Below are positions 1-15,580 of a stretch of DNA of 21,616 nt, piece after piece. The notes beneath the pieces are model-generated. The model had not been told where the DNA came from. It was given only the letters and a program-made list of their open reading frames with translations, and searched no databases. The stretch is from a virus. The position numbers and the translations under genes are program-made. The stretch's first letter is position 1. Each line of letters opens with the position of its first letter. The stretch is from IMG/VR virus record IMGVR_UViG_3300030109_003551, positions 1-21,616 of that record; one strand, given 5' to 3'.

Positions 1-237
1 TGTGTGGGCGAATATAAGTACACGCCCAAATCTCTCTTATCCGCTGCTTTCGATTATCCTTTTACTAAGTGTGGGGTTGATATTGTGTTTGGTGTAGTTA
101 ATAGTTTGAATGACAACGTATTAAAGTACGATATGAAATTAGGGTTTAAAGAAAAAATGCGTTGGGAAGGAATGCATGATGACGGTGGGGATTTAATTCT
201 ATTAGAGATGCATAAGAGAGATTGCAAATGGATATGA
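1..237 (+). CDS. GNAT-family acyltransferase, C-terminal fragment (5' cut by window edge)
   Basis: The reading frame is open to the first base, so the GTG at 4 is probably an internal codon and the gene starts upstream of the window. The visible 78 residues match the C-terminal half of GNAT N-acetyltransferases: an AAFDYPF helix segment, a strand ending in GVVNSLN (the N-x-N-like turn before the last helix), and the hallmark K-L-GF-K-E turn followed by a final hydrophobic strand (DLILLEM). GNAT enzymes move an acyl group from acyl-CoA to an amine; the substrate cannot be told here. It sits directly upstream of three virion genes. T7 gene 13, an internal virion protein that has been compared with acetyltransferases, has the same position, so a virion role is possible. 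Its stop overlaps the next gene. The acetyl-CoA-binding P-loop lies outside the window and cannot be checked. Confidence 0.7.
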   Translation, partial: CVGEYKYTPKSLLSAAFDYPFTKCGVDIVFGVVNSLNDNVLKYDMKLGFKEKMRWEGMHDDGGDLILLEMHKRDCKWI

Positions 238-1211
238 AAATTTATGACTTAATAAATCCAAGATTTTGGATGGAACTTTTTACCTTTTATGGTGGAAGTA
301 AAGGTGGCGGAGGTAGTAGCCAACAAGTATACCAATCCCAGATGCCAAAAGAATTAGTGCCGTATGCAAGAGATATAGCGAAACAAGCTCAAAAATATGC
401 AGCTGAAGAATACACCCCTTACGGAGGAGAAAGAATAGCTGCTTTAGACCCTGCCCAACAAAGAGCATTAGGAGCGTATGAGTCTATGGGGCCGTCCCCT
501 TATTTTCCTGCGGCTGGACTAGCAGCTTTACAAGCAACCCAAGGGGCGATGCAAGGATTTACTCCTCAACAATTTGGTGCAGATCAAGCAGCCCAATATA
601 TGTCTCCATACCAACAAGCCGTTACTGATGTAGCTAAACGACAAGCTACAAGTGAAGCAGAGAAGATGAGAGCTAATATAGCTGGACGAGCTCAAAAAGC
701 AGGTGCATTTGGTGGCTCTCGCTATGGACTTATGGAGGGTAAACTTTACTCTGATTTAGGCACTCGTCTATCTGACATACAAGCCAAAGGCTCAGAAGCT
801 GCGTTCCAGCAAGCACAGCAGCAATTTGAAAGAGATCGAGCAGCTCGCATGGGAGCAGAAGAGTTAAGACAACGTGGACTTGGTATGGGTATAGAGGGAG
901 CTAGAGCATTAGGACAACTAGGGACTACCCAACAACAGTCAGAAATGCAAAGATTACAAGCTCTAGAACGTGCAGGTACATTACGTCAAGCAGAAGATCA
1001 AAGGTTATTGGATATGAGGTATCAAGATTTCCTACGTCAAAAAGAATACCCATACAAACAACTTGGGTTCTATTCTTCTATGATTCGAGGATTACAACCA
1101 ATAAGCCCGTATTCTACATACAAACCCCCTCCTAGTCCGTTCCAACAGGCTTTAAGTTTGGGATTGGCTGGATTAGGAGCTTCTAGGTTATTCGGAGGTG
1201 GAGGCAACTAA
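228..1211 (+). CDS. Gln/Ala-rich phage virion protein (probable internal virion or ejection protein)
   Basis: This 328-aa protein probably belongs to the virion. It has no signal peptide. After a short start it has a Gly/Ser run (SKGGGGSS), then a segment of the type YTPYGGERIAALDPAQQ, which I know from many uncharacterised phage structural proteins. The middle (roughly residues 120-270) is helical, rich in Q, A, E and R, and likely coiled. The end carries YPYKQLGFYSSMIRGLQP, a pattern shared by the same group, then a Gly/Ala/Leu-rich amphipathic tail ending GGGGN. I chose ATG 228 because AAGAGAG at 214-220 lies 7 bases upstream. ATG 234, which forms ATGA with the upstream stop, is an alternative, and TTG 222 is unlikely. 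Its place between a GNAT gene and a transglycosylase gene resembles T7 gene 14. The ejection role is inferred from order and composition, not from a diagnostic motif. Confidence 0.6.
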   Translation: MDMKIYDLINPRFWMELFTFYGGSKGGGGSSQQVYQSQMPKELVPYARDIAKQAQKYAAEEYTPYGGERIAALDPAQQRALGAYESMGPSPYFPAAGLAALQATQGAMQGFTPQQFGADQAAQYMSPYQQAVTDVAKRQATSEAEKMRANIAGRAQKAGAFGGSRYGLMEGKLYSDLGTRLSDIQAKGSEAAFQQAQQQFERDRAARMGAEELRQRGLGMGIEGARALGQLGTTQQQSEMQRLQALERAGTLRQAEDQRLLDMRYQDFLRQKEYPYKQLGFYSSMIRGLQPISPYSTYKPPPSPFQQALSLGLAGLGASRLFGGGGN

Positions 1212-3403
1212 TGGCGATTCAAGATCAAGGTATAGCATCTATAACTCCTAGTATAGGAGCAGCAGGTATAACTTCAACTTCACCTACATTGCAAAGTGTA
1301 GTGCCTAAACAAACTATAGATCAAACTGTAGATTATCTTAAAAAAGTTCCTTTTGAGTATTTAAGGAGTGAAATGACTAATCCTACAGGGGATATACCTA
1401 TATATCTGGTTGCCGCTGAAACATCTAGAAGGCTTAACGAAACTAAAAGGGCTCAAATGCCTGTACCTCCTACCAGCACTGTTGCGGATAAACTATTAGA
1501 AGAATCAGGAATTATGTCTCCGGTTGCTCAAAGAGCTCCTATGCCTTCCGAAATGCCAATGCAGTTTAGTAACGGAGGTGAAGTATTTGCTCCGGTTTAT
1601 GGAGAAGGTATGGGGTTTGGTCGTCCAGAGGATGAATTTGGAAATACATCTGCACTAGCTAACACTTTAACATCTCAAGACTTTAGACGATTAATAGAAG
1701 ATGTTGCAAGGGAGCGAGGACTTACTTTAGAACAAGCTGCTGATTTAGTAGCAATGGGTACACAAGAATCTAATCTAAACCCATACTCTCCAGTAGGAGG
1801 GGCAGGTGAAATAGGGGGTATGCAGGTTAAACCTTCTACTGCAGTTGATCCGGGGTCAGATCAGTACTTTACTGCTTTTGGTGATGAGTCAGAACTAGCT
1901 GCGTATACTAATTGGCAAAGAGAATTTGCTGAAACTCAGGGTAGAAACCCTAAATACGGAGAAAAGGTAGAATGGATTGGGAGTAACATGCCCAGAACGG
2001 CAACAATGCTAGAAAACCCACGTAATAACGTAGACACAGCCACTGCATATTATCAAGGGCTTTTATCTAGATACGATGGGGATAGAGATAAAGCTATAGC
2101 CGCATATAACCAAGGCTATGGTGCTATAGATAAAATTATACAAGAAGCTCAGATAACGGGTAGACCTTTCTTAGAAGTATTAGAAGAAGCTAACCCCGAA
2201 GGGTATGCGTATTTAACGTCAGTAAATAAGAATTTATCTGCCCGTCCTGAAGCCACTGTAGATTTTCCTGAAGGGCCATCATTAGAAGAGGCTGTCGAAG
2301 AGAAAGAAAAGGTAGACAGAAAAAGAGAACTAGAATTAGAGCAAGAAAAAATAAGAGAAAAAGAAAGAAAAGAACAAGAAGAGAGAGATAGGGAAAGAAG
2401 ATATACACCAGACGAGATTATTATAGGTGGTGAGCCTCCTAAAAAAGATGATCCTGAACCTAAAGCTGAACCTAAAGTTGAAACTACAGTTATTCCTAAA
2501 GACGCACTTACAGGTTTAGCTCCTTCTTTTGCTCGTAATACAGACTTAATAGAACGAAGAATTAGAGGAGGGGCTTTATCGCAAGGTCTAGATGCAGAAT
2601 TGTTTGAGGCCGATAATCAATCCGAAACACTTTATAGCGAAGTAGGTAAGATATATAAACAGTATACAGACTCAATGGAGAAAGGTAGTGACCTAACAAG
2701 AGAACAAGCAAAAGATCAACTTACCAAAAATTTAAAAGATGCAGGGCTAGATGATCTTTATAGCGATCTTAGAAAAAGACTAGATAAACGTGGGCTAAAA
2801 CAAGAAGAAAGAAACGAATTTTTAAGGGCTTTACCGTTCTTTAATGCGGCTTTAGTTGCTATAGAAGGTGGCGATCCGGGTATACTTCAAACTTTTGCTA
2901 GAGTAGGTAAAGCAGGGCTAGAAAGTTATGGCGAAATAGAACAACTAATTAGTAAAGAACAGGATGCATTAGATGAAATGGAATTAGCTTATGAGCAAGC
3001 TATGATAGCCCAAAATCAATTTAAATATACCGAAGTTAATAGGCTACTCGCAGAAAGTGAAGCTAAACATAAAGAAGCCTTAACAACACGATTTGAAATG
3101 ATGTATAAACTGACAGATCAAAAACTACAACAAAGTTTAGCTGAAGCTAACTTAGTTTCTGACGCAGCACGAGACGCAGCAGACAAAGAGTTTAGGTTAG
3201 AACGAGATATTAAAGAGGCAATACTTGAGGGTGAAATGGAACCAATGTTTTTACAAGAAGAAGCTCGTGCAGAATTAAAAACGACACAACCAAACGCAAA
3301 CACAGAAACTTCAGCGTATAAACTTGCTCTTGAAGATACACGTAGAAGGTTAATAAGACAAAAAGTATTAGAAACTTATCGTATTAATCCGTTTGAAAAT
3401 TAA
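1211..3403 (+). CDS. Virion lytic transglycosylase with SLT domain (peptidoglycan-cutting ejection protein)
   Basis: This 730-aa protein has a soluble lytic transglycosylase domain at about residues 155-310. The catalytic Glu186 sits in TQESNLNP, followed by GEIGGMQVKPSTA (199-211) and AAYNQGYG (297-304), the three signature motifs of the SLT fold. Such enzymes cleave the MurNAc-GlcNAc bond of peptidoglycan; in virions they open the cell wall during DNA entry. The first 100 residues hold a short segment (DIPIYLVAAETSRR, then PPTSTVADKL) that recurs in phage virion proteins. Residues 355-400 are a highly charged E/K/R coiled coil, followed by a Pro/Lys linker, and the C-terminal half is mostly helical. 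ATG 1211 overlaps the previous TAA (TAATG), with GGAGGTGGAGG at 1194-1204 as a strong ribosome-binding site. There is no signal peptide, which fits a particle-borne enzyme better than a secreted endolysin. It corresponds in position to T7 genes 15/16, where the transglycosylase is instead at the N-terminus of gp16. Confidence 0.88.
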   Translation: MAIQDQGIASITPSIGAAGITSTSPTLQSVVPKQTIDQTVDYLKKVPFEYLRSEMTNPTGDIPIYLVAAETSRRLNETKRAQMPVPPTSTVADKLLEESGIMSPVAQRAPMPSEMPMQFSNGGEVFAPVYGEGMGFGRPEDEFGNTSALANTLTSQDFRRLIEDVARERGLTLEQAADLVAMGTQESNLNPYSPVGGAGEIGGMQVKPSTAVDPGSDQYFTAFGDESELAAYTNWQREFAETQGRNPKYGEKVEWIGSNMPRTATMLENPRNNVDTATAYYQGLLSRYDGDRDKAIAAYNQGYGAIDKIIQEAQITGRPFLEVLEEANPEGYAYLTSVNKNLSARPEATVDFPEGPSLEEAVEEKEKVDRKRELELEQEKIREKERKEQEERDRERRYTPDEIIIGGEPPKKDDPEPKAEPKVETTVIPKDALTGLAPSFARNTDLIERRIRGGALSQGLDAELFEADNQSETLYSEVGKIYKQYTDSMEKGSDLTREQAKDQLTKNLKDAGLDDLYSDLRKRLDKRGLKQEERNEFLRALPFFNAALVAIEGGDPGILQTFARVGKAGLESYGEIEQLISKEQDALDEMELAYEQAMIAQNQFKYTEVNRLLAESEAKHKEALTTRFEMMYKLTDQKLQQSLAEANLVSDAARDAADKEFRLERDIKEAILEGEMEPMFLQEEARAELKTTQPNANTETSAYKLALEDTRRRLIRQKVLETYRINPFEN
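2456..2479 (+). repeat. 12-bp tandem repeat in the transglycosylase linker
   Basis: Two adjacent copies of GAACCTAAAG(C/T)T encode the Pro-Lys-Glu linker EPKAEPKV between the charged coiled coil and the C-terminal half. It is a short slippage-type repeat that keeps the frame and is probably a flexible spacer. Confidence 0.6.
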
Positions 3404-6400
3404 TGGCTACTCCAATTGACAATTTACTTGGGTCTATAGCTTCTTTTGATCCTTACAATCCTGCGTTTGACCCTAGGTCATATAGAAGAAGGGTGCGGGT
3501 TCCTGAACGGCAGCCTATTGGAAAGTTACCTCTAAGGGAAGCAGGGTTTTGGACTGCTTGGAAAGACTCACGACTACGTGCCGATGAATATCTAGCGGCA
3601 AAAGAGTATGCTGCAAACCCTAACGATACAACAATGGAGGCTTTAGCTAAAGTTTCAGAGCCCACATACGCATATCTTTCTAGTGATGAAGTTTTAAAAA
3701 ACCCTTTACTTGCTTGGAAATTTTTACGGCAACAAGCAGGACAGGCTTTTGGATTTATGACTAATCCCATAGTGGCTTCTGCGGCAGCTAGTTTTATCCC
3801 CGTGCCCGGTTCTGGCCCTGTTGCTTTTATGACGACTGGAACTGCATCTTATACTACTAGTTATTTAATTAGAAAAGCCCAAGAAAACCAACGGTTAATA
3901 TCTGAAGGTAAAATGGCGGATCATGACCTAGATTTGAATACTATGTTAGGGTCAGGTTTTGCTTCCGCAGGTTTAGATTTATTTGGACTACGTTTATTAA
4001 AAGCAATAGGAGCTGCTGCAGGGTTAGCGGGTAGAGATGCACAAAAACAATTTTTTAAAACAGTGCTTAATTCACCTAAGTTAAATCCTAATGCCGGAAT
4101 ATTAGGAGAAGGAATCCCATCAAAAGGTTTAGCAGCTAAAACTCTTAAAGGTAGGTTAGGTAAAGGAGCCGCAGCAGCTGCAGCCTTTGAAGCTCCTCAA
4201 GAAATGATACAAACAATACTTGAAAGAAATGCTGTAGGTTTGTCTCTTACAGATGAAGAAGCACAAAGGGAAATAATAGAAGCAGGTATTTTAGGTTCTA
4301 TACTAGGAGCTCCTCTTGGAGCAATATCTAACTTTAATAATAGAGTAGAACAACAAGAAACCCAACCACCCCAACCACTTTTATTAGGAGCCCCTCCTGA
4401 ACCTTCTCCACCAACTGTTCGTAATCTTAGAACTTATGAAGTTACCCCACAGAAACAATTAACAGGTTTTCCTAAAATACCTTCTCCTGAACAAATAGAC
4501 GAGAAACTTGGAGTAAAAGAAATAGATATGGGCCCTGCTGTAGAAGTAGACCCTACAACACCCCCACTTCCAGATTTAAGATCAGCACCTTTTGGTACAA
4601 ACATTATGTACGCAGATGCAGAAGGAAATGTTCGTCCTTATGGGCCTAATTTTGAAGCTGAATACCCAGAGTATGACGATAGAATACCCCCTATACAAGC
4701 AGACACAAAGGTAGTTGGAGAAGCTAAAGGAAGAATTACTCAACTTAGAACACAGTTAGATCAGGCTGAAAAAGCATCTTTAGACAAACAAGACCTTATA
4801 GAACGAAACAGAACTCAAGTAGCTATTTTAAAGTTTGTAAAAAGCAAGCTTGGAAAAAAGATGATAAGAGCTCCTAAAAGACTTCAAGGTAGGTTAAGTC
4901 AAATAAAAGCTGCAGCAGAACAGTTTAAGGATAAGTTTGCTATTGATAACGAAATTGAACGACTTGAAGCAGCAATTAAAGTTGTAAATCAAGAAGAAGA
5001 TAGAATAAACAACGAAATTCGCAATCAACTAGATATTATTAAAGCAAATAGAGGACGGGTAGGGTTAATTACTACTGGGGCTCCTATAACTGAACGAATA
5101 TCTAAGGTTGTAGGGGCTCCCCTAAGAGGTGAAGATGCAGGTAGATTAAGAGAAGAACAACTAACTAACGAGGCGGCTCGTAGTATTGTTCAAATGGTTG
5201 GCGACACTCCATATGCGGGTTCTAAAAGTAATCGTTACATTAGAGACTTAATTAGTTTTTTTGGAATTCCCACTTCTTTTATAGAATCTGTAGAGGCAGG
5301 TAAAAAACGAGATGAGAGTTTAGGTAGAAACGCTGACATAGACAAAGACACTAAAAATAAAAATGCAGATAAAAGAGAGGTCAATAACTACGCAGAAACA
5401 CGAAACGATAATCTTGCTAAGGATACAGTTAGTCGAAGAGAAAGAGTAGCTGCTGAAAATGCAAATTATGAAGAATTTAGAGGTTTACCAGTAGAAGAAC
5501 AGCTAATAAAAGCATACCTTCCTACTTTTAGTGAGGCAGATATGTTGCAGTTTAGAGACCTTAGTAATTTTGGGGCTATAGATTGGAATCGAGTAACTGA
5601 GGAATCTAAAAAACGTTGGCTTGAAGCAAATATTAGGTTTATAGAAAAAGAAAATAGAAGACCAATAACCCCAAAAGAGCTTGAAACTTTAGAAACGGAA
5701 ATTGGACAAGAATATTCAGATTTAGTGGACATGTTAGTTCCGGGCACTACAGAAGATATAAGAAAAACTTCTGGAAAACCAGACCCAGCTAGTGAAAAAC
5801 TGCAAGCTCAATTAAGCGCATCAAATACATTTAATGAAGAATGGAAAGCTAACTTCAAAGCATCGACAGCAAGTTTACCTATAGGTGCAAGAGAACGCTT
5901 GTACCAAGCTCTTGTAAAAGAAAATAAACGAGCGTTAGCTAGAAGAACAAAAACAGATAAAAAAGCCCCTTACATAACGCTTGAAGAAAAAGTTGAAAAT
6001 TTATACGATTATAAAAATCCTCTTCTATTTGCAAGTGAAGTGCCTATTAGTGCCGAGAAAATAGCAGACTTTTATAATCTTGACGTTAGGATTCCTGAAG
6101 ATAGACAAATTTTAACCGATCTAATTAAAACCCAAAGAGCAACAATTACTGCTCGAAAGAAAAATAGAAGGAGACAGTTAGATGCGGCTTACAGAGATGA
6201 GAAAAAAAGATTAGGAGTAAATAAATTAACATCAGTACAGAAAGAAAGTATAAAACGTAATCTTCCAGTGATATTGGAAACTGAAGCCCAACGAAGAGTA
6301 GATGAAGAACTAGAAGGTGTAAAAACAGGGCCAACGGCTAGACCAGTAAGTCAAAGAGACAAAGCAAAAGCTGGCCCAGTAACAATCACTAACCCTGAGA

Positions 6401-9400
6401 CAACAGAGCAGATAACATTTATTCCGCCAAAAACTAGCAGGTCTAGACCTAGAGTAATAGAACCAGACGGCAAGAAGAGAATAGCTACTTTAGATGAAAC
6501 AAACATTTATAATGAAGGTATACGAGCTAGAGAATTTGAAGATGCAAATGTTGAAGATGTAAGCGTTGAGGATATAGACTACAATGCATTTACTAATTAT
6601 GTAGATGATATACCTTTATCTAGTGATGACATAAAAGGTCGAAGTATTGATGGTATTACCTCTGAGCGAATAATAGCTAACGATTTAAAATCTGCCTTGC
6701 GTCAAATATCTAAAGAAGTAGGTGGAGTAATGGGTAGAATAGCTAATAGATTATCGGCACTGGGGCTTAAAACATCTATAGTTTACGGACGAGTTACAGA
6801 CCCTATAACTGGAGCTAGAAAAGAAGGTCAGTATGACCCTACAACAGATACCATAACATTAGACCCAGAATATGGAGCTAATGTACATACATTACTACAT
6901 GAGGTTACACACGCTGCTACACAAAATGCGTTAAAAAGAGGGGGTAAAAACCCTATAGTTAGGCAGTTAAATGAGTTGTACAAGTTTAGTAAGAATTACA
7001 TAGACGGAGATGTATTCCCTGATGCTGCTCAAAGTCTTGAAGAATTTGTTGCTGAAGTATTTGCTAACCCTCAATTACAAAATAGATTAAAAGAAATTAG
7101 CTATAAACAAAAACGTAGGTATAGTTTATGGGAGCGTTTTATAAATGCAGTTAAGCGTATCCTTAGATTACCTACAGAATCTGTCTTTGACCAAGCGTAT
7201 AACAGTATTAATAAAATACTAGAAGTTCCAGACATTGATCCTGAAGGCACTACTTTATACAGAATGGGTATATTCTCTAATAATACGTATAAAGATAATG
7301 TAGCAACTAGTATGTTTAAGAAGTTTGACAAAAACTCTAAGATAGGACGGGATCAATCCAGCACTAGTCCAGATACTATACTAAGTCTACTGTTAAACTC
7401 TGGGGCTCCTGTACGAAAATTAGTTTCTGGATTTATGCCTCTTTCTTTCTTAAATAAAATGGCTCAAAGAGTGTTTAGTCCTGAAGTTCGGGAGATGAGT
7501 GACCAACTTGTAAAACTTATAAAAGATAAATCTCGATATTTATTGGAAACTAAAAAAGCGTTTAGCCCCATCGTCATGGCTGCATATAAGCTTAGAAGTA
7601 AAGATGTAAAAAAATTCGATGCATTTAGAGATATAGTAAATGAAAGCACGTTTAACGAAACTAAAATAGCTAACGATGCGGATGGTAGTCCATTAACAAA
7701 AGAACAGTTTGAGGAAGCTAAAGCAAAATGGAACAGCAAACAAATAGCTGGAGATATAATCGATACAGCTTATAAAAAAGAGGAACAACGATTAGGTCGT
7801 TCGTTAACAGAAACAGAAAGAAAAACTATAAGAAGTGCAGAACTACAAAAAGTGTTTAAAGAGTGGGATAAGTTATATGCTCGTTATACTAATCTAGAAA
7901 AACCGTATCAAGAAATGTACGGAAAAATGAGAAGAGCCTATGACGCAATATATAAAGAATTAACGAATCAACTTGCTCCTTTGATAGATAGATATGTAGA
8001 AAATCCTGAAGCCAATGCTAGTATAAAACGAATGATCCAACAAAAAATAATACAAAGGCAGAACATAGACCCGTACTTTGCATTGTCTAGATTTGGAGAG
8101 CATAAATTATTTTATATAGACCCTGTATCAAAAGAAAAAGTTGTTGAGTTTTTTGAAAGCCCCAAAGCTAGAGATGCAGTTATAGATCAAGTTAAGATAG
8201 ATATACTAGATACTGCTGGGTTTAAATCGGATGCTGACATGGGTAGACGACTTTTAGACTTTGATAATGAAAGACGTAAGTATGGAATAAATATAACTTT
8301 AGATTTAGAAGACGCTACTGCAAAATACGGAAATAACCCTGATCGTCTTAATACATATAATACGCTCATGGAAGAGTACAAACGTTTTGATGAAAAAGCT
8401 AAAAGAGTGTTGGAAGAATTAGGCGATATAACTCCTTTTAATAAAATGGATATTAGAAATGGCGGGGATTTAGGTAATATACCCGATGATGCATTTATTA
8501 AAAAAATAATGGGGTTTGTAGATAACGATGACAGTAATTTAAGTAGAGAAGAAAAAAATCAATTTTATGAAACAATTATAGAGGCTATGCCTGAATTTCT
8601 TATAACAGGTAATATGCGAACTAGATCATCTGTACGTGGCTATAGTAAAGATATAATAAGATCGTTAGCAACTTATGGAGACAACCATATAAGGATGGCG
8701 GCTAACCTTAAATATAACAGAGATATATTAAGCACTTCCAATAATATAGAGTCAGTTATAAACAATGTTAGAAAAGAAGGTAATACTGATAAATTTGATT
8801 TTGAATTTGGCGTTGATATAGCCCAAGACTTTAGTACCTCTCTACAAAACAGAGCTAAATTTGCAGCTAACCACACATCTTTTAATGCGATAACAAGGGG
8901 TTTTACTGCAACAAGTTTTCACTGGATGATGGGTTTTAATATGTCTTCCGCATTAATACAACTAACCCAACTTCCTATGGTTGTATACCCTATGCTAGGA
9001 GGGGAGTACGGCTTTTTAGAAGCTGGTAAATCTATAGGCAAAGCTACCCGAATGGTAATGGGTTCTGGTAAATTACTCTCTGATTCTGAATTAAATTTGT
9101 ACAAAAAAGATGGTAAATCTTTTAAATATTGGGGCTATAAAAGAAAAGATAAAGATTTAATAGGGGATGACTATGTAGATGATGCAATCCCTAGCATACT
9201 TAATTACAGTCGAGAACAAGTAAATTATCTACAAGCAAATACACAACAACGAAAGGCTTTAGAAAAAGAGTTTGCAGGGAATCGAAATGTTTTGGAATCA
9301 TTTAAAAAAGTGCCTAGCACTCTTGAGTTTACTAAAAAAGATGCAGCTACAGGTAAACAAGTAGCCTATAGTAAGAATGACTTTAACGATTTAATAGATG

Positions 9401-10695
9401 CCCTAAAGTATAGGGAAATAGGTAGATCAGCTACATACGAGTATATGGAATTAGGACGTAATTCTGCTGAAGACTACGGCCCTTATAAACGTACAATGGC
9501 TCAAACGATGGCAGCTTCTGCGACAGCATTTAATGCAGCAGATCAATTTAGTAGAGAAGTAACAGCTATAGCTGCATTTGATTTGGAAATGAAGGAGTCA
9601 GGAAATAAGACATTAGCAATTCAAAAAGCTGCTAACGCATTAGAGGAATATCATGGCCCTGCAGCTTCTGAAACAACTTCAGGAATAGCTCAGAATAATT
9701 TAGGTAGAATCCTAACTATATTTAAACAGTACGGTATGGCTATGTATAGTTTACTATTTTCTTCTATGTATAGAGCGTTGCCTAGAGGATGGACGGGAGG
9801 AAGAGTAGACCCACGAGACGCTGCGATAGCAAGAAGACAAGTGGCAGGATTATACGGGGGCTCGTATTTATTTGGTGGTGTGCAGGGAATGCCTTTCTTT
9901 TTTATCCCTGAATTTATACACGACATGTTCTTCAGAGATGATGGCGAAGATGATTTTGAAACAAAAACAAGAATGTTCTTTGGTGAAGCCCCGATAGATA
10001 GATTGTTAGGTGTATCAGTATCTACTAGAGCTTCATTTGGGGATTTAATTGTAAGAGATTCTAGAGAAGATATTAGAACAGCCACTGGACTTATGGAAGA
10101 AGCTTTAATTCAAATTGGTGGAGCTCCTTTTAGTATCGTATCTCAATTCGCTAAAGGAGCAGATGAAATAGCTGAGGGAAATGTTTTGAGGGGTTTAGAG
10201 TCTGCAATCCCTGTAAGCACTAGAAATTTAATGAAATCCCTTAGATATGCTAGAGAAGGAGCTCGCACTACTAGAGGAGATATAATACTAGGGGATGTTC
10301 CGGCTTCAACTCTTGTAGCTACTGCTTTAGGATTAAGTGATAAAGACTTAATGATGCAGCTGGAGAAGAATAATTGGCTAATACAGAAAAGAAATGTTTT
10401 ACAAAAGAAGCAACAAAAATTATTACATGCTTTGCATTTAGCTAGAAAAAACTACGATACACAATCTTATGCAGAAATATATAAAGAAATATTTGAATTT
10501 GCCGAAAAACATCCAGAATTAAATATAACAGGCAAGAAAATACAAGCTTCGTTGAAAAGAAGGCAAAAGAATAGTGAAATTGCAGAGTTATACGGGGGTA
10601 TGATATTGGATAAAAAATACAGAACCGCCTTTACAGATAGATATAATGATTGGGATGTGGGGATAAATACTTGGGATGATCCTTTATATGATTAA
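3403..10695 (+). CDS. Giant (2430 aa) phage ejection/polyvalent protein with HEVTH metallopeptidase domain
   Basis: Probably the large DNA-ejection protein of the virion. In order: a Pro-rich basic start; hydrophobic helices at about 117-157 and 183-213; a segment of the type PQEMIQTILE...LGSILGAPLGAI (265-309) common in large phage internal proteins; coiled coil at about 443-550; a long charged middle; a metallopeptidase site with H1166-E1167-V-T-H1170 and downstream EEFVAE (E1213, E1214, E1218) as likely third zinc ligand; a long helical part; a region around 1830-1870 (FHWMMGFNMSSALIQLTQ) resembling the LPD38-type domain of large polyvalent phage proteins; and hydrophobic helices at about 2100-2130 and 2147-2173. 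The hydrophobic parts fit membrane insertion. The peptidase may mature virion proteins or act on host protein after entry; its target is unknown. ATG 3403 overlaps the upstream TAA (TAATG) without a clear ribosome-binding site, so translation is probably coupled. It is about twice the length of T7 gp16. I saw no convincing RNA polymerase motifs, so an N4-type virion polymerase is unlikely. Confidence 0.75.
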   Translation: MATPIDNLLGSIASFDPYNPAFDPRSYRRRVRVPERQPIGKLPLREAGFWTAWKDSRLRADEYLAAKEYAANPNDTTMEALAKVSEPTYAYLSSDEVLKNPLLAWKFLRQQAGQAFGFMTNPIVASAAASFIPVPGSGPVAFMTTGTASYTTSYLIRKAQENQRLISEGKMADHDLDLNTMLGSGFASAGLDLFGLRLLKAIGAAAGLAGRDAQKQFFKTVLNSPKLNPNAGILGEGIPSKGLAAKTLKGRLGKGAAAAAAFEAPQEMIQTILERNAVGLSLTDEEAQREIIEAGILGSILGAPLGAISNFNNRVEQQETQPPQPLLLGAPPEPSPPTVRNLRTYEVTPQKQLTGFPKIPSPEQIDEKLGVKEIDMGPAVEVDPTTPPLPDLRSAPFGTNIMYADAEGNVRPYGPNFEAEYPEYDDRIPPIQADTKVVGEAKGRITQLRTQLDQAEKASLDKQDLIERNRTQVAILKFVKSKLGKKMIRAPKRLQGRLSQIKAAAEQFKDKFAIDNEIERLEAAIKVVNQEEDRINNEIRNQLDIIKANRGRVGLITTGAPITERISKVVGAPLRGEDAGRLREEQLTNEAARSIVQMVGDTPYAGSKSNRYIRDLISFFGIPTSFIESVEAGKKRDESLGRNADIDKDTKNKNADKREVNNYAETRNDNLAKDTVSRRERVAAENANYEEFRGLPVEEQLIKAYLPTFSEADMLQFRDLSNFGAIDWNRVTEESKKRWLEANIRFIEKENRRPITPKELETLETEIGQEYSDLVDMLVPGTTEDIRKTSGKPDPASEKLQAQLSASNTFNEEWKANFKASTASLPIGARERLYQALVKENKRALARRTKTDKKAPYITLEEKVENLYDYKNPLLFASEVPISAEKIADFYNLDVRIPEDRQILTDLIKTQRATITARKKNRRRQLDAAYRDEKKRLGVNKLTSVQKESIKRNLPVILETEAQRRVDEELEGVKTGPTARPVSQRDKAKAGPVTITNPETTEQITFIPPKTSRSRPRVIEPDGKKRIATLDETNIYNEGIRAREFEDANVEDVSVEDIDYNAFTNYVDDIPLSSDDIKGRSIDGITSERIIANDLKSALRQISKEVGGVMGRIANRLSALGLKTSIVYGRVTDPITGARKEGQYDPTTDTITLDPEYGANVHTLLHEVTHAATQNALKRGGKNPIVRQLNELYKFSKNYIDGDVFPDAAQSLEEFVAEVFANPQLQNRLKEISYKQKRRYSLWERFINAVKRILRLPTESVFDQAYNSINKILEVPDIDPEGTTLYRMGIFSNNTYKDNVATSMFKKFDKNSKIGRDQSSTSPDTILSLLLNSGAPVRKLVSGFMPLSFLNKMAQRVFSPEVREMSDQLVKLIKDKSRYLLETKKAFSPIVMAAYKLRSKDVKKFDAFRDIVNESTFNETKIANDADGSPLTKEQFEEAKAKWNSKQIAGDIIDTAYKKEEQRLGRSLTETERKTIRSAELQKVFKEWDKLYARYTNLEKPYQEMYGKMRRAYDAIYKELTNQLAPLIDRYVENPEANASIKRMIQQKIIQRQNIDPYFALSRFGEHKLFYIDPVSKEKVVEFFESPKARDAVIDQVKIDILDTAGFKSDADMGRRLLDFDNERRKYGINITLDLEDATAKYGNNPDRLNTYNTLMEEYKRFDEKAKRVLEELGDITPFNKMDIRNGGDLGNIPDDAFIKKIMGFVDNDDSNLSREEKNQFYETIIEAMPEFLITGNMRTRSSVRGYSKDIIRSLATYGDNHIRMAANLKYNRDILSTSNNIESVINNVRKEGNTDKFDFEFGVDIAQDFSTSLQNRAKFAANHTSFNAITRGFTATSFHWMMGFNMSSALIQLTQLPMVVYPMLGGEYGFLEAGKSIGKATRMVMGSGKLLSDSELNLYKKDGKSFKYWGYKRKDKDLIGDDYVDDAIPSILNYSREQVNYLQANTQQRKALEKEFAGNRNVLESFKKVPSTLEFTKKDAATGKQVAYSKNDFNDLIDALKYREIGRSATYEYMELGRNSAEDYGPYKRTMAQTMAASATAFNAADQFSREVTAIAAFDLEMKESGNKTLAIQKAANALEEYHGPAASETTSGIAQNNLGRILTIFKQYGMAMYSLLFSSMYRALPRGWTGGRVDPRDAAIARRQVAGLYGGSYLFGGVQGMPFFFIPEFIHDMFFRDDGEDDFETKTRMFFGEAPIDRLLGVSVSTRASFGDLIVRDSREDIRTATGLMEEALIQIGGAPFSIVSQFAKGADEIAEGNVLRGLESAIPVSTRNLMKSLRYAREGARTTRGDIILGDVPASTLVATALGLSDKDLMMQLEKNNWLIQKRNVLQKKQQKLLHALHLARKNYDTQSYAEIYKEIFEFAEKHPELNITGKKIQASLKRRQKNSEIAELYGGMILDKKYRTAFTDRYNDWDVGINTWDDPLYD

Positions 10696-10919
10696 TCTAT
10701 TCTCCAAATGCGTAACCCTCTTACGTTATTTTCTAAAACTGTTTTGGACGCTATTCGCACTCCAGCTTTTCTGGCTTTTTTGGCTATTTCATACAGTAAA
10801 GGGCGGCATTTACAACAAGGTAGGAAAAAACTAGTACCCACTTGAAACGCCCACCAATCTATATGGACAGGCGTTCCCTCTAGGTTTAACCAAGATATTT
10901 TACTCGTCTTCTCCTTCAT
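10692..10919 (-). CDS. Small conserved phage protein, W-rich (function unknown)
   Basis: This 75-aa protein has the pattern V-G-T-S-FF-L-P (27-34), a helix (LLYEIAKKARKAG), then E-N-N-x-x-GLRIWR (to 73). I recognise the arrangement of a GxSFFxP segment, a basic helix and a closing G-x-R-x-W-R from small phage proteins of unknown function, though I cannot name a family. Three Cys (35, 36, 38) are too close together to suggest a classic zinc knuckle. The ATG lies inside the 3' end of the primase-helicase gene (20-base overlap) and has only weak upstream pairing to 16S rRNA, so translation is probably coupled to that gene. Its TAA shares the TTAA with the stop of the giant virion gene on the other strand. 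It is the last gene of the replication operon. Confidence 0.65.
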   Translation of the reverse strand: MKEKTSKISWLNLEGTPVHIDWWAFQVGTSFFLPCCKCRPLLYEIAKKARKAGVRIASKTVLENNVRGLRIWRID

Positions 10920-13758
10920 CCTTATCTACTGAATCTACCTTATCACTATCCAAGATTAAACATGATACGGGTGGGGATTTTATATAACCCTTACCCAACC
11001 TAATATATTTCGGCTCTTTAAAACACACCCCGTTATTTCTCAAATTCTTAACCATAAACGTGTAGTCAATCTGTTTCTTACTACACCAATTACGTAACGA
11101 TCTAGAATTAATATACAGTCTGTTTTTATCTGGTTCCTCTCTTATCACTATATTAGCGGAAGGCTTATGTATAATGTCCGAGTCCTCAACCATAGTATCT
11201 CGCCTATCTACATCAGAGTTTAAAATTAATGTAGCGTTCAGATGCTCTGAAAGAAATATACCTAATGACTCTTCCGCAGTTTTTACCATACCCTTTGGAG
11301 TGTTTTGTTGGCTTATAAGCTCTGCAAGTAACCATTCATAAGTAGACTGAACATCAAATCTCCATAACCCTAAATCATTTCCTAGCTCTACGCCCGTCAT
11401 ACCTATACCTGCCATAGCAACCCAGAAACGTTCCTTGTTTGTAAAGTCACCGTCTTTTCGTATCTGTCTAATCATACTCTGGACTTTTTCCTTACATTCC
11501 TCTGGATGTCCTATCATGTACGGTACAATAACTTCTGCAGCTACTCCATGATTTTCAAATAACTCATTTATAAGATCACCGTTTTCTTCATCACTTAAAT
11601 TATTATCTTTAAATTCAAACTGCAGTAACCGCATCAACTCACCTTCAGGAGTTGCCTTCTCATACGTAAGTAAATCAGTAATGCTTGAGTTAGCTGTAGT
11701 TATCGTCCCAGTATTCCAAAATATATTATTAATTCTTTCAGCATTCTCACTGCCTTTTAATCTGTTTATACCTTCTCCATCTGATAATGTGTACACAAAC
11801 TTAGAGGCTTCTTTAGGGTCTAGGTTAGTTATTTCGTCTATACATAAAGGAATGGATTGATATATACCCAAGCGTTGCAACCAAGAGTTAGGTGTATCTG
11901 CTCCTTTCATCGCCAATCCCTTAGGATGCCCCCATATAGAATTTACACTAAGTATCGTAGCACTCTTGCTTTTACCGCTACCATCTGAGCGTAGATGTAA
12001 CAGACCCCCATTCACATTGGTGTATTTAAACAAAGGACATGCAAGACCAAATCCTAAAATAAACCTACGATATTCTTCACCCTCTCTAGCATATAACTTA
12101 TTTATCGCCTGTTTCCATTTATCAAGCTCTCCTGCATAGGAAAACTTATGAGCGTAACGGCTGAGTGTCATATTCTTAGGAGTAGGCTTACACCCCCCTG
12201 CCGTAAATTCTCTATCTCCTAACACAAAAGATTGTGCATTATTACCCCACCCCATTTGGTTATATGCTTTTGTTACTTTCTCTGTTTTCTCTAAATATTT
12301 TAACCAAGCGTTTAGATATCCCACTATTTCTCCTTTCTGATTTTCTCTCTCAACCACAATTCCATACTTACTTAATACATCAAATTTAGATTTACCATTT
12401 AAATCAGCAAAAGATATAGTAAAATCTCTAGTGCCGTCTTTAGGTAATTTAAAACGAATCTGTGCCAACATACCTTCTTCTGAATCCTCTAATCTTTTTT
12501 CCATAAATAAAGGATTATCATATACACATATAAATCGAGGTTTCTTGTTTTTGGCATCAGGGGGTTTTTCCATCCATACGCCTTGCCCCTCTACATAACT
12601 ATAAGGTTTTGGGGGAACCGGAATGTTATACTCAATAACAGTTCCTATTTTTTCTAGAGTATCCCGTACTAATATAGGTTTCTTTATTCCCTTTAATGTT
12701 TTGGCTAGAGCTATAGGACTATTAATAGAATCTTTATACGCACACTTAATGCACAATTCAGGATTCAACGCTTCAAACTTCTTACATGTATGAGGTTTAC
12801 CTTTAATGTTTATTACTTTTTTCTTAGTCTCTTCAGGAGTGTAATCTGGATATCCCTCTGATAGTTTTTTTATAGCCCCTTCTTTATCATCACAATATAA
12901 AGCTATAGATAGTCCTGCAAACCATAAAGGTTCTGATTGATCTTTTGGGTTTTTAACCAGATCATTAAGTTGATTACACTTGTTTACGGCAGTATTAAAA
13001 TCATAATTTATATGTTCTGATAGTATAGGTGTAGTGTTATCTTCAGGAATTATATCTACAGGCTGTTCTACCTCTTTAACTTCTTCAACCTTGCCTAAAA
13101 TACTATCCCAAAACTCATAGGTATGTGAGCCATCTCCCTCAGCAATAATTCTAACTGGGACTTTGCCCCCCTTTTTATAGTTATGAGTGCCTACAATTCT
13201 CAACACTCTAGATGCATCTGTAGATACAACTGGGTCTATTACCAACCCGGCATTAATGAATAAAACTTTTAATCGGCCCGCTAGTGATAACCATTGTTCT
13301 TTTTCTATTGGGGCTTCTAGACAGTAATGAATATGTACACCAGACCCAGAACCTACTATTAATGGCATAGGTAAATCATTATCCTCCACAACCCTTCTAA
13401 GTTCTTTAAGAGCTTCAGGCAGTTCTGCATAAGAATTCTTAACTTTCCCTACATCTATATCGTAAGATAAAGTGCTAAACCTACAAGCATTCTCTGCTAT
13501 TCGTAAATTTTTTCTCTCTCCTTTTTTATACTTCTCATATACTTCTTTCTTATAATCAGCTATAGCGTAATACGCATCTATTCTTTTAGAGTCTAAATCC
13601 TCCGCTATCTTAGCAGCTTCAGATATAGAAGAAGCCCAGTATTGATTGGAAATAGATTTTTTCTCCCCTGTATGCTGTAAACTAAAAATACAGTATGAGT
13701 ATTCACCATCTCCGTAATCATCGGGCAGTACAGTTTCTAAGAAATGTTTTGGGATCAT
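10900..13758 (-). CDS. Primase-helicase: AEP primase fused to DUF927-like/SF3-type ATPase
   Basis: This 952-aa enzyme would make primers and unwind the fork. The N-terminal archaeo-eukaryotic primase domain shows D100-x-D102 for metal binding, H142-I-H144 after GSGSG, and R184/R187 with the GTHNYK loop (190-195), the three AEP motifs. A linker carries C325, C336 and C339 (HTCKKF...CIKC), a likely zinc site often found between such primases and their helicases. The C-terminal ATPase resembles DUF927: Walker A at 590-597 (RSDGSGKS), Walker B LCIDE (638-642), a sensor-like TTAN (687-690) and an arginine at 710. The P-loop has Arg590 where the first Gly/Ala is expected. ATG 13758 has AGGGG 7 bases upstream and begins 9 bases after the preceding stop. 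It takes the place of the VapE/D5-type primase found with SSB, PolA and VRR-NUC in many other phages. Confidence 0.88.
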   Translation of the reverse strand: MIPKHFLETVLPDDYGDGEYSYCIFSLQHTGEKKSISNQYWASSISEAAKIAEDLDSKRIDAYYAIADYKKEVYEKYKKGERKNLRIAENACRFSTLSYDIDVGKVKNSYAELPEALKELRRVVEDNDLPMPLIVGSGSGVHIHYCLEAPIEKEQWLSLAGRLKVLFINAGLVIDPVVSTDASRVLRIVGTHNYKKGGKVPVRIIAEGDGSHTYEFWDSILGKVEEVKEVEQPVDIIPEDNTTPILSEHINYDFNTAVNKCNQLNDLVKNPKDQSEPLWFAGLSIALYCDDKEGAIKKLSEGYPDYTPEETKKKVINIKGKPHTCKKFEALNPELCIKCAYKDSINSPIALAKTLKGIKKPILVRDTLEKIGTVIEYNIPVPPKPYSYVEGQGVWMEKPPDAKNKKPRFICVYDNPLFMEKRLEDSEEGMLAQIRFKLPKDGTRDFTISFADLNGKSKFDVLSKYGIVVERENQKGEIVGYLNAWLKYLEKTEKVTKAYNQMGWGNNAQSFVLGDREFTAGGCKPTPKNMTLSRYAHKFSYAGELDKWKQAINKLYAREGEEYRRFILGFGLACPLFKYTNVNGGLLHLRSDGSGKSKSATILSVNSIWGHPKGLAMKGADTPNSWLQRLGIYQSIPLCIDEITNLDPKEASKFVYTLSDGEGINRLKGSENAERINNIFWNTGTITTANSSITDLLTYEKATPEGELMRLLQFEFKDNNLSDEENGDLINELFENHGVAAEVIVPYMIGHPEECKEKVQSMIRQIRKDGDFTNKERFWVAMAGIGMTGVELGNDLGLWRFDVQSTYEWLLAELISQQNTPKGMVKTAEESLGIFLSEHLNATLILNSDVDRRDTMVEDSDIIHKPSANIVIREEPDKNRLYINSRSLRNWCSKKQIDYTFMVKNLRNNGVCFKEPKYIRLGKGYIKSPPVSCLILDSDKVDSVDKDEGEDE

Positions 13759-13767
13759 ATATAACCC

Positions 13768-13962
13768 CTACTTAGCCGCACGTTCTAATAAACTTAATAG
13801 AATATGCACCTTATTTATATGAGTGGAATGCTTAGGGGCTGTACCTCCTTCAAACCAAGACATCAGTGTGGGTCTAGATATATCTAATAGTGTAGACATG
13901 TCAGAAACTGTTACCTTTAAATCTACACAGCGTTGCCCTAATTCTTTACCAATAGATTCCAT
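13768..13962 (-). CDS. Small XRE-like helix-turn-helix DNA-binding protein
   Basis: This is a 64-aa protein whose core is a helix-turn-helix: a first helix IGKELGQRC, then VTVSDMSTLLDISRPTLMSWFEGG, where SRPTLMSW is the recognition helix, and a closing helix INKVHILLSLL. It is probably a transcription regulator or origin-binding accessory protein. I chose the ATG at 13962, since AGGGGGG (13968-13974 on this strand) lies a few bases upstream. The frame stays open to another ATG at 14049, which would add 29 aromatic, hydrophobic residues with no HTH character and only weak upstream SD pairing. The inverted repeat and pyrimidine tract described separately lie in that stretch. It precedes the primase-helicase by 9 bases. 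Target site unknown. Confidence 0.75.
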   Translation of the reverse strand: MESIGKELGQRCVDLKVTVSDMSTLLDISRPTLMSWFEGGTAPKHSTHINKVHILLSLLERAAK

Positions 13963-14060
13963 AAAATCCCCCCTAAATAATGGTAGAAGCCCTAGATAAG
14001 CCACGAAAGGAAAGAAAGGACTATAAACCCATCCAAGGCTTCTACACATAACTAAATATC
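13963..14060 (-). promoter_or_regulatory. 98-base leader before the HTH gene with inverted repeat
   Basis: This is the longest gap in the window. It holds a perfect 9-bp inverted repeat, GTAGAAGCC (13983-13991) and GGCTTCTAC (14037-14045), separated by 45 bases. On the transcribed strand the loop carries a run of only C and T (14005-14020). That run could pair, with G-U wobbles, to the A/G-rich ribosome-binding site at 13967-13974. No poly-U follows, so it does not look like a terminator. It may be an RNA fold controlling the HTH gene or a site bound by the HTH protein. Confidence 0.4.
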
Positions 14061-14702
14061 TTATTTATCTTCTTTTGCCCAACCCTTAATCATATCTTCT
14101 TCTGATTCGGGGGGTTGTTCTTTATCTTTTTTACTAGGACGTTTAGTGGGTTCATCTGCTTCTGATCCTGCTTGGAGCAGGGTAGGATCGCCTTGCTCTG
14201 ATTTTATTTCATCGGATATTCTTTTTTGCATCTCTCCCTCCGATTCAACAGGTTCAAAATCCTCGTCCTCCATGTAAGGAATAAACTTAGTAACCTGCAC
14301 TGATACAAGAATTGAAGATATACCTGTCCTACCTGCTACATCATAAGCATATTGATAAAGTTTAACACTCCCCCTAGAGCCATTACCTAAACTAGTAGCG
14401 TCTATAACTTCATTCGCCCCGTTAACTACTCTTACAGGTTTGTTTTCAGTGCCGTCTAATTTGTAACGCTTGCGTTTAAGGTTCACTATGTATTTACTAT
14501 CATCATTTTTATCTGTCTTTACAGTTAAATGATTTGCCTTCCAGTCATCTGCTACCTTTTTATCTTCAGTAGCTATTTGAAGTTCCCACTGCTCCGTACC
14601 AAATGGATTTACAGCTTTAACCAACTTAGGCCAGTTAAACTCTACGTCCTTAATGATAAGATTGCGAGGTTCAAACGATGCTTCTTTTTTGGCTTTTGCC
14701 AT
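14061..14702 (-). CDS. Single-stranded DNA-binding protein with acidic C-terminal tail
   Basis: This 213-aa protein would coat ssDNA at the replication fork. Residues 15-143 look like an OB-type beta fold: FNWPKLVKA near the start, alternating strands (KYIVNLKRK, PVRVVNG), the turn LGNGSRGSVKLYQY (105-118), and a closing strand ILVSVQVTKFIPY. The NGS-then-valine-strand pattern is typical of phage ssDNA-binding proteins. From residue 144 on it is Glu/Asp-rich and disordered, like the acidic tails of T7 gp2.5 and other SSBs that recruit polymerase and helicase. The start has AGGAG 7 bases upstream and lies 10 bases after the preceding stop. The gene is next to a Cys-rich partner and upstream of the primase-helicase. 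The assignment rests on fold pattern, tail and context rather than one catalytic motif. Confidence 0.7.
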   Translation of the reverse strand: MAKAKKEASFEPRNLIIKDVEFNWPKLVKAVNPFGTEQWELQIATEDKKVADDWKANHLTVKTDKNDDSKYIVNLKRKRYKLDGTENKPVRVVNGANEVIDATSLGNGSRGSVKLYQYAYDVAGRTGISSILVSVQVTKFIPYMEDEDFEPVESEGEMQKRISDEIKSEQGDPTLLQAGSEADEPTKRPSKKDKEQPPESEEDMIKGWAKEDK

Positions 14703-14712
14703 GACATTACTC

Positions 14713-15339
14713 CTATGTAATTGTAGAAAAATCAGGGTCTTTAACTATTTTTAATCTAGTAATTTCACTAGACCCCTCACTTCTTTGTGAAACTACTTTA
14801 TACTCTTCGGGGGTTATGGCTCTAACAGGTTTAAATAAAACCTTGGGCCTCCCGTTTTCAAACTCAAAAAATGCTTGAGTAACTACGTGAGCAACTGAGA
14901 GTTCATATTGGGTTAAATATTCAGTGTATGCATTATATGGATACTTACCCACTTTGTTTTTACCAAATATAGAGGTAGAAGACAGGATAACCCTATATAA
15001 ATCCCCATTAAGTTCTTCGGGTAACAAAACAGCTAACCGTAAACTATGCTTACAAGCTTTAGAATTACCCCCACCAGACCCTTTTATATCATTAGAACAC
15101 GACATACATAAGTTACTTGGAGCATTTTCAACATCTGCATCAGGTTTTTTACCATCATTGCTCCAACAAGTCGGGGCGGTAGTATTTCCATCCTTATAAC
15201 TTTCTTTGTACCAAACTCTCTGGATTTTTGGGGCTACGCCTACTATTATCCAGTCCTGTGGTTCAGAGGTGTTAATGATTCTACCCTTATAGAACCTACT
15301 AAAAACCCCATCTTTTATAGAAATCTTACTATGTACCAC
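14713..15339 (-). CDS. Four-Cys (putative zinc) phage replication-module protein
   Basis: This 208-aa protein is of unknown function. It has C58 (PTCWS), C78-x-x-C81 (LCMSC) and C96 (ACKH), with H98 near by, a spacing that suggests one zinc site in a loop inserted into a beta-rich fold. The later part (RLAVLLPEEL, VGKYPYNAYTEYL) and the gene's place directly upstream of the SSB suggest a nucleic-acid-binding partner, perhaps a second OB-type protein or a recombination mediator; that is inference. The start is GTG at 15339, inside the last codons of the HTH gene (11-base overlap), with only weak SD pairing, so translation is likely coupled. No enzyme motif is visible. Confidence 0.65.
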   Translation of the reverse strand: MVHSKISIKDGVFSRFYKGRIINTSEPQDWIIVGVAPKIQRVWYKESYKDGNTTAPTCWSNDGKKPDADVENAPSNLCMSCSNDIKGSGGGNSKACKHSLRLAVLLPEELNGDLYRVILSSTSIFGKNKVGKYPYNAYTEYLTQYELSVAHVVTQAFFEFENGRPKVLFKPVRAITPEEYKVVSQRSEGSSEITRLKIVKDPDFSTIT

Positions 15340-15580
15340 TATCAGACTTTCGTAAAGATGGTCTAGCTACTCTTTTTCCACCTACAATAGACTGCTTATT
15401 AAAAGCATCTCCTACTACATAGTCTCGTACACTATCTATGGTAAACATATAACTACCTCTTAGAACAATATAAGGTATGTCATCTCGTTTCACCATTCTT
15501 CTGACAGTAGCTGTACTAACTCCCAAATATTCTGCTATTTCTTTGAGAGTAACTAATTTAGTATCTTCTTTAAGGGTCAC
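15329..15580 (-). CDS. MerR/excisionase-type helix-turn-helix protein
   Basis: This is an 83-aa DNA-binding protein. Residues 10-33 (VTLKEIAEYLGVSTATVRRMVKRDDIP by pattern) form the winged HTH of the excisionase/MerR group: an EIAEYLGVS helix-turn, TVRRMVKR as recognition helix, then IPYIVLRGSYMFTIDSVRDYV as wing and closing helix. The basic tail (GGKRVARPSLRK) may also touch DNA. No integrase is in the window, so excisionase function cannot be claimed; a regulator or origin-binding role is as likely. It starts with GTG at 15580, fixed by AAAGGAG 6 bases upstream. It is one of two HTH proteins in the operon. Confidence 0.8.
   Translation of the reverse strand: MTLKEDTKLVTLKEIAEYLGVSTATVRRMVKRDDIPYIVLRGSYMFTIDSVRDYVVGDAFNKQSIVGGKRVARPSLRKSDSGT

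What the first reader, a model, noticed from the sequence alone, without database searches (positions are those of the whole stretch)
3403..10695. Giant 2430-aa ejection-type protein with a zinc-metallopeptidase site in its middle
The sequence shows HEVTH at residues 1166-1170 with EEFVAE about 45 residues later, inside a protein with several hydrophobic segments and an LPD38-like C-terminal part. T7-type ejection proteins are about half this size and carry a transglycosylase rather than a peptidase; here the transglycosylase is in the gene just upstream. A virion-borne peptidase could process its own chain or other virion proteins, or be injected to act on host protein.
Basis: partly seen in the sequence, partly recalled or inferred. 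Interest (0 to 1): 0.5.

Follow-up and report, generated by a model that had tools for sequence, protein, structure and literature searches.

The report
Giant phage ejection protein with zincin
A phage protein of a kind already described, probably injected into the host with the DNA, contains what looks like a real zinc-protease domain; related phage injection proteins carry the same domain, often at a similar place, but what it cuts is still unknown.

Summary
The 2430-aa ORF has one HExxH (HEVTH 1166-1170) in a confidently predicted zincin-like fold; the likely third zinc ligand is E1214. HExxH is present in 51 of 51 C-terminal relatives whose sequence reaches far enough (29 of 80 do not); motif presence was not used to pick them. 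The protein is a PLxRFG 'polyvalent' protein, third in an ejection-type trio: gene 1 (ejection protein), gene 2 (transglycosylase), gene 3 (giant). The kind is known: Iyer et al. 2017 described zincin metallopeptidases in such proteins and proposed self-processing, release of parts in the host, or attack on host proteins. A domain profile reaches four virion-type proteins with solved structures, N4 RNA polymerase and PhiM1 gp48 among them; the PhiM1 paper calls the matching region endolysin-like. The less obvious result is architectural: among motif-bearing contigs the zincin mostly stands about 1,150 residues before the C-terminus behind very variable N-terminal parts. I favour a protease acting after ejection on its own chain or the ejection complex; no substrate or activity is shown.

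The parts
222..1211 (+). gene 1, 329 aa, DNA-ejection-type protein (small member of the trio)
   Evidence: PHROG 4287 'DNA ejection protein' E 1.8e-19; 87% identical to its counterpart in L180 over residues 1-307
1211..3403 (+). gene 2, 730 aa, transglycosylase-bearing protein; SLT best stretch at residues 254-314 (about 1970-2152)
   Evidence: Pfam SLT E 4.8e-12
3403..10695 (+). gene 3, 2430 aa giant PLxRFG / polyvalent, internal-virion-type protein
3466..4695 (+). N-terminal conserved block, residues 22-431
   Evidence: similar in L179 (22-431) and L180 (22-310); part of it in L038 and L182 by iterated profile, 4 of 36 N-parts in all
4696..6678 (+). non-conserved charged middle, residues 432-1092; no Pfam match
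   Evidence: no BLAST similarity to L179 or L180 there; 35% charged; no Pfam family at E<=0.001 in residues 1-1136
6679..7212 (+). zincin-like metallopeptidase (MPTase) domain, about residues 1093-1270
   Evidence: AlphaFold2 of residues 1086-1290, pLDDT 84, pTM 0.71; fold and profile matches
6898..6912 (+). HEVTH, residues 1166-1170: predicted zinc histidines and catalytic glutamate
   Evidence: H, E, H in 29 of 29 rows of A5
7042..7044 (+). E1214, predicted third zinc ligand
   Evidence: 28 of 29 rows of A5 have E, one D; invariant in A1, the window and 12 phage proteins
7273..10692 (+). C-terminal carrier module, residues 1291-2430, mostly helical
   Evidence: model pLDDT 79, pTM 0.79; NF032893 best stretch 1979-2395
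8074..8097 (+). YFALSRFG, residues 1558-1565, the PLxRFG-type motif (reading of the motif recalled from its name)
   Evidence: alignment of relatives, consensus PYFPL.R.G

Best explanation
The ORF is a giant internal virion (ejection) protein of the PLxRFG/polyvalent kind, third of a trio that corresponds in domain content to the three proteins of podophage ejectosomes. Its middle holds an apparently intact zinc endopeptidase of the zincin class (two His of HEVTH and E1214 hold zinc, E1167 activates water). The chain is packaged uncut, passes through the tail with the other ejection proteins, refolds at or across the inner membrane, and only then the peptidase works. Its most likely substrate is its own chain or a neighbouring ejectosome protein, cutting near the long unconserved stretch just in front of it to free the N-terminal part from the constant C-terminal carrier. 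Shown here: sequence, predicted fold, conservation, architecture, relatives. Inferred: virion location of this protein, zinc binding, activity, timing and substrate.
For: Fold: N-terminal helices, three strands, HExxH helix, then a helix bearing E1214, the layout Iyer et al. give for these domains. Solved matches by VIA-align: lethal-factor zincin Z 9.1, N4 gp50 9pnt residues 2124-2358 Z 7.7, PPEP 6.5-7.5, PhiM1 ejectosome protein Z 6.7. A profile of 86 sequences reaches 9sfn_G 'internal virion protein' 4e-24, PhiM1 gp48 2.9e-14, 23sg_S 'gp10' 8.5e-13, N4 vRNAP 1.8e-7. Conservation: 51 of 51 testable C-terminal relatives have HExxH 650-1100 residues before the C-terminal block; 29 of 80 are too short to tell. 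Architecture: of 158 motif-selected loci, 101 with a complete 3' end have a median of 1158 residues from HExxH to the C-terminus (quartiles 1119-1203), while the N-part of the 38 complete at both ends ranges 77-2558. Virion location in a homologue: Cellulophaga phage phi14:2 gp076, annotated structural from MS/MS. Uncut before ejection: N4 vRNAP is packaged unprocessed (PMC5512222 section 8).
Against: No activity, zinc or cut site is shown, and no virion data exist here for this phage. Recombinant full-length N4 gp50 showed 'no evidence of degradation' (PMC12633501 section 5), which speaks against easy self-cutting. The C-terminal module exists without this domain: Atu_ph08 matches the module with 379 bits but has no HExxH in the 3989 residues seen, and Rollin has an HEMGH that the MPTase profile does not match. 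No dedicated search for a cut-site motif was made; the stretch in front of the domain shows no similarity to L179 or L180. Foldseek alone had no match at E<=0.001; its best rows are a mycobacterial regulator (E 0.009) and lethal factor (E 0.03). 9pnr, another N4 gp50 entry, aligned with rmsd 19.3.
Confidence: 0.5

Rival explanations
1. The peptidase is an effector: once injected it cuts a host protein (for example a defence, envelope or transcription protein).
For: Iyer et al. list this option. The nearest solved relatives outside phages are secreted or injected enzymes that cut other proteins (their biology is recalled). Other N-parts of the family carry predicted effector-like domains such as ART-PolyVal, 2 of 37.
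Against: The domain sits at a near-constant distance from the C-terminus with many different N-parts and in phages of very different hosts, which suits a general step of delivery better than a host-specific target.
Confidence: 0.25
2. The peptidase processes the chain during assembly or inside the capsid, before ejection.
For: Phage P1 DdrB is processed before packaging and has an MPTase domain (PMC5512222 section 8).
Against: N4 vRNAP is packaged unprocessed; recombinant gp50 shows no degradation. The PhiM1 domain is modelled within a gp48 chain in the mature particle (8vb2_A), but no mass spectrometry was done on PhiM1 (passage), so that is weak.
Confidence: 0.15
3. The domain is mainly structural (a folding or oligomer piece) and its catalysis is unimportant.
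For: The N4 C-terminal region is required for encapsidation and represses transcription (PMC5512222 section 5, PMC12633501 section 11); the sections and passages I read report no measured protease activity of a phage MPTase domain.
Against: H, E, H are identical in 29 of 29 rows of A5 and the third-ligand Glu in 28 of 29, although identity to the window is only 22-37%. A purely structural domain would be expected to lose them sometimes.
Confidence: 0.1

Closest known systems
Phage-type polyvalent proteins with zincin-like MPTase (Iyer et al. 2017, PMC5512222)
   Same: Giant multidomain chain, HExxH zincin plus Glu helix, LPD39-like and PLxRFG C-terminus, next to ejection genes; the functional options were already proposed there.
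   Different: No Pfam metallopeptidase model reaches its cut-off here: only Tox-MPTase4 (E 0.06-0.08) and DUF6782 (E 0.07-0.13) appear, both below cut-off. No recognisable cargo domain in residues 1-1136.
PLxRFG domain-containing proteins (NCBIfam NF032893)
   Same: 278 bits against a cut-off of 100; the giants of L179, L180, RHph_TM3_14A and Rollin also pass.
   Different: The model covers only the C-terminal part of the chain.
PhiM1 ejectosome TEP gp48 (8vb2; PMC11440229)
   Same: Same zincin-type domain, and a lysozyme-like domain in the neighbouring ejection protein (OEP), as SLT is in gene 2 here.
   Different: 1263 aa; the A5 profile matched gp48 only at profile positions 47-262, around the zincin. 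The paper names Asp268-Asp528 endolysin/exotransglycosidase-like.
N4 virion RNA polymerase gp50 (9pnr/9pnt; PMC12633501)
   Same: C1 subdomain with HExxH, followed by about 1,100 mostly helical residues.
   Different: Polymerase in front. The C-module profile matched none of the four N4-like vRNAP loci at E<=10, and gp50 was not among the rows shown for the C-module model.
T7 gp16 (internal virion protein D)
   Same: Large third ejection protein; weak fold similarity of the C-module (9jyy_I 'core proteins of mature T7', Z 4.1, 220 aligned) and to predicted 'Internal virion protein D' of Roseobacter phage CRP-4, E 3.4e-5.
   Different: T7 gp16 carries a transglycosylase (PMC11440229, passage); here that domain is in gene 2. 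Z 4 alone is not evidence of kinship.

Membership tests
Zincin-like MPTase of polyvalent proteins | HExxH in a helix after a three-stranded sheet, and Glu in a following helix | tested here: met
Zincin-like MPTase of polyvalent proteins | Statistical similarity to other phage MPTase-type domains | tested here: met
   hhalign probability 99.7 with an N4-like set (4 sequences) and a T7-like set (6 sequences)
Zincin-like MPTase of polyvalent proteins | Placement in one of the 12 clades of Iyer et al. | not tested
   their alignments were not at hand
Zincin-like MPTase of polyvalent proteins | Zinc binding and proteolysis | not testable with these tools
   needs protein
PLxRFG proteins (NF032893) | Score above the curated cut-off of 100 bits | tested here: met
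   278 bits
LPD38 / LPD39 (Pfam) | Score above the Pfam gathering score | tested here: not met
   LPD39 19.9 bits against 27 and no LPD38 listed at E<=1; 25 of 29 rows of A5, window included, match LPD39 at E<=0.01 and LPD38 is not listed
T7 gp16-type ejection protein | Third gene of an ejection trio with a peptidoglycan enzyme in the trio | tested here: met
   gene order, PHROG 4287 in gene 1 and SLT in gene 2; same order of small, middle and large internal protein in KiKu
T7 gp16-type ejection protein | Common fold with T7 gp16 | tested here: inconclusive
   Z 4.1, 220 aligned
DarB-like antirestriction protein (PHROG 10089 label) | DNA methylase plus SNF2 helicase in the chain | tested here: not met
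   no such Pfam match in P0001 at E<=1; only the C-terminus, best stretch 2028-2405, matches the PHROG

The most novel reading that the evidence does not exclude
The zincin marks the joint between variable N-terminal cargo and a constant C-terminal carrier in a broad class of phage ejection proteins, and it is a late, post-ejection step of the ejectosome itself (release of cargo or dismantling of the tunnel). It has been overlooked in at least one solved ejectosome (PhiM1 gp48), where the domain is named endolysin-like. If so, existing genetic and structural systems (N4, PhiM1, P. putida T7-like phages) could test it at once.
Probability: 0.3. Interest if true: 0.6.

Novelty: new member of a known kind. 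Interest (0 to 1): 0.33.

Why it matters
Zincin domains are the commonest domain type of polyvalent proteins (Iyer et al.), yet what they cut is open. The near-fixed distance to the C-terminus, the conservation test and the link to solved ejectosome proteins give a testable frame: change one glutamate in a cultured T7-like or N4-like phage and ask what stays uncut.

Tried and rejected
Close relatives by whole protein or by the single domain in viral contigs: none confirmed. Pfam on the domain alone: only sub-threshold hits. PDB sequence search with the single protein: no hit at E<=1. Profile of the C-module against the 18 named phage loci: matches only Atu_ph08, Rollin, RHph and Parlo; none in the N4-like or T7-like ones at E<=10. 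PDB fold search of the C-module: best Foldseek E 0.5, best VIA Z 5.4 over 51 residues, so no solved fold is claimed; N4 gp50 not being among the rows shown does not exclude kinship. Idea that HExxH is chance: rejected. Idea that E1213 or E1218 is the zinc ligand: E1213 varies; E1218 is Gly in KiKu, ErraM and Axy21 and other residues in more rows, though it is invariant in A5. Idea that the transglycosylase is a fixed partner: L180's counterpart of gene 2 has no Pfam hit at E<=0.1. A simple text pattern for GHKL ATPase motifs found nothing, so the carriers of the HATPase hits are not named. An earlier count said that P. putida proteins carry a transglycosylase and entry 3 says the giant cannot be aligned in DNA with L180; both were too strong and are corrected in the report.

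Rows dropped. Pattern search: 159 loci, of which 158 were analysed; L178 was left out by my id range and holds the motif too. A3: 148 of the 158 had a segment of 195 aa or more, 85 remained after removing near-duplicates, plus the window. Its members were chosen by the motif, so one search shows kinship, not motif conservation. One search counts: extremes of the C-part are 83 and 1703, and short ORFs such as L120 (83) and L051 (156) are included. A5: the window and 28 of the 29 non-redundant loci; L237 left out because its domain has a long insert. In the 52-row alignment, HExxH is out of register in two rows (H1166 in 50 of 52) and two rows show D at 1214 (L247, and L258 which looks misaligned); all 51 loci do have HExxH by pattern.

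Full report
What is there. The window is a 21,616-base virus record. Three + strand genes run 222-1211, 1211-3403 and 3403-10695; genes on the other strand follow from 10,900 on. Gene 3 is 2430 aa with one HExxH, HEVTH 1166-1170, and EEFVAE from 1213. By composition 0.005 HExxH would be expected.

Is it a zincin? AlphaFold2 on residues 1086-1290 with 86 sequences gave pLDDT 84 and pTM 0.71; the elements are helix, helix, three strands, HExxH helix (model 76-95), helix, and a helix (127-136) that bears model residue 129 = E1214. That is the layout described for MPTase domains of polyvalent proteins (PMC5512222, section 8 read in full). The VIA-align second look ranks lethal-factor zincin (Z 9.1, rmsd 4.5, 147 aligned), N4 gp50 9pnt (Z 7.7, rmsd 4.6, 164 aligned, residues 2124-2358), PPEP peptidases (Z 6.5-7.5) and PhiM1 8vb2_A (Z 6.7, rmsd 4.2, 129 aligned, 290-499); a second N4 entry, 9pnr, aligned badly (rmsd 19.3). 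Z under 8 can mean a common arrangement only, and Foldseek alone had no match at E<=0.001, so the sequence evidence matters: the 86-sequence profile reaches 9sfn_G 'internal virion protein' (4e-24), PhiM1 gp48 (2.9e-14), 23sg_S 'gp10' (8.5e-13), N4 vRNAP (1.8e-7) and lethal factor (2.8e-6). The call does not name the organisms of 9sfn and 23sg. Profile-profile comparison with four N4-like and six T7-like domains gives probability 99.7 each. Zinc-site distances were not measured.

Is the site kept? In the window and 12 phage proteins (A1) the only invariant columns are H1166, E1167, H1170 and E1214; these proteins were found by similarity to the domain. To test without choosing by the motif, I took 80 viral contigs by similarity to residues 2040-2330: 51 reach far enough upstream and 51 of 51 have HExxH 650-1100 residues before that block; 29 are cut off; none of the testable ones lacks it. 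These are the best 80 of 354 confirmed relatives, so the test covers the nearer ones. In the non-redundant alignment A5 (29 rows with the window), H, E, H are 29 of 29 and E1214 is 28 of 29 with one D. Farther away there are exceptions: Atu_ph08 has the C-module but no HExxH in the 3989 residues seen (about 890 of its residues were not fetched), and Rollin has an HEMGH that the MPTase profile does not match.

Architecture. Relatives L179 and L180 have the same arrangement where their sequence allows: ejection genes, the giant, then a primase-type gene on the other strand; L179 begins inside the preceding gene. Their giants match the window in two blocks, residues 22-431 (22-310 in L180) and 1093-2429 (1099-2425), with nothing detectable between. 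In 158 motif-bearing loci the distance from HExxH to the C-terminus is fairly steady (101 with complete 3' ends: median 1158, quartiles 1119-1203, extremes 83 and 1703), while the N-part of the 38 ORFs complete at both ends ranges from 77 to 2558 residues (sd 518, against 264 for the C-part) (N-part measured from the upstream stop). For the window the same measure is 1265. In a Pfam scan of 37 N-parts (window included), 5 match HATPase_c, 2 ART-PolyVal, 1 LPD22, 1 SutA-RBD and 1 weakly ZNF598 PAH; the window's has none at E<=0.001. RHph_TM3_14A carries InPase (860-994) before its zincin. So the zincin stands at the head of a constant carrier behind changing cargo. N4 vRNAP shows the same order, with C1 2124-2375 and C2 2376-3500 (PMC12633501: abstract, passages and sections 5 and 11 read), but my C-module profile matches none of four N4-like vRNAP loci, so only the zincin is shown to be shared.

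Ejectosome reading. Gene 1 matches 'DNA ejection protein' (PHROG 4287, E 1.8e-19), gene 2 has SLT, gene 3 is the giant. PhiM1 has EP3 (gp50), an OEP (gp49) with a lysozyme-like domain and the TEP gp48 (PMC11440229: passages and section 7 read). The paper calls gp48 Asp268-Asp528 endolysin/exotransglycosidase-like; its main text has no 'protease', 'peptidase' or 'HExxH', and 'zinc' only in unrelated places. My profiles and the fold comparison place the zincin match, with HEAAH and HEF, inside or across that region (8vb2 376-514, 348-582, 290-499). I found no paper that says so in the searches (open-licence PMC texts only; listings seen). The C-module model (pLDDT 79) has no PDB match of weight, but predicted viral proteins named polyvalent and one 'Internal virion protein D' match it.

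T7-like relatives carry the domain: P. putida phages, Achromobacter Axy21 and Xanthomonas pradoviruses. Titan-X has SLT and zincin in one chain; the KiKu and Axy21 proteins had no Pfam hit at E<=0.1, so the record's label 'endolysin domain' for KiKu is not confirmed.

How it works. The candidates were all named by Iyer et al.: processing before packaging, processing after entry, or an effector. N4 vRNAP is packaged unprocessed and recombinant gp50 shows no degradation, which argues against early or easy self-cutting. The steady place at the head of the carrier, shared by phages of unrelated hosts, argues for a general delivery step. I therefore favour action after ejection on its own chain or its ejectosome, at about one half, with a host target at one quarter. 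Nothing here shows activity.

Verdict. A sound observation of a known kind of protein, with a useful architectural regularity and a probable relabelling of a solved domain.

Noticed in passing
8vb2 (PhiM1 gp48) Asp268-Asp528: The domain that the PhiM1 paper calls endolysin/exotransglycosidase-like contains the zincin match with HEAAH and HEF; it looks like a metallopeptidase-type domain seen in a virion.
   Followed up: partly
window 1-1102 against L180 290-1394: 87% identical DNA that stops near the end of gene 1; gene 2 has only short protein similarities, the giant aligns in DNA only in three short pieces (48, 93 and 358 bases) and at about 30% in protein, while pieces beyond it are 66-77% identical in DNA. 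The ejection genes differ far more than their surroundings.
   Followed up: partly
L180 1512-4103: The counterpart of gene 2 has no Pfam hit at E<=0.1, so the transglycosylase may come and go between near relatives.
   Followed up: partly
N-parts of the giant proteins (alignment A7): 5 of 37 N-parts match HSP90/gyrase-type ATPase (HATPase_c). The words HSP90, Bergerat and GHKL do not occur in the main text of the polyvalent protein paper. Which loci was not resolved.
   Followed up: no
L019 13315-19869 (Pseudomonas phage Rollin): C-module relative with another HExxH (HEMGH, residue 1052) that this MPTase profile does not match: perhaps a replaced peptidase at the same place.
   Followed up: no
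L006 (Vibrio phage PG11 vRNAP): Two successive zincin-type matches in one vRNAP (HELVH and HEMTH).
   Followed up: no
L018 (crAss-like cr272_1): Two in-frame stops inside the domain segment, perhaps stop-codon recoding.
   Followed up: no
window 10900-20817, - strand: Replication module: DUF927 primase/helicase, SNF2-type helicase, PD-(D/E)XK nuclease, family A DNA polymerase; the primase is 28% identical to a protein of Pseudomonas phage Rollin.
   Followed up: partly
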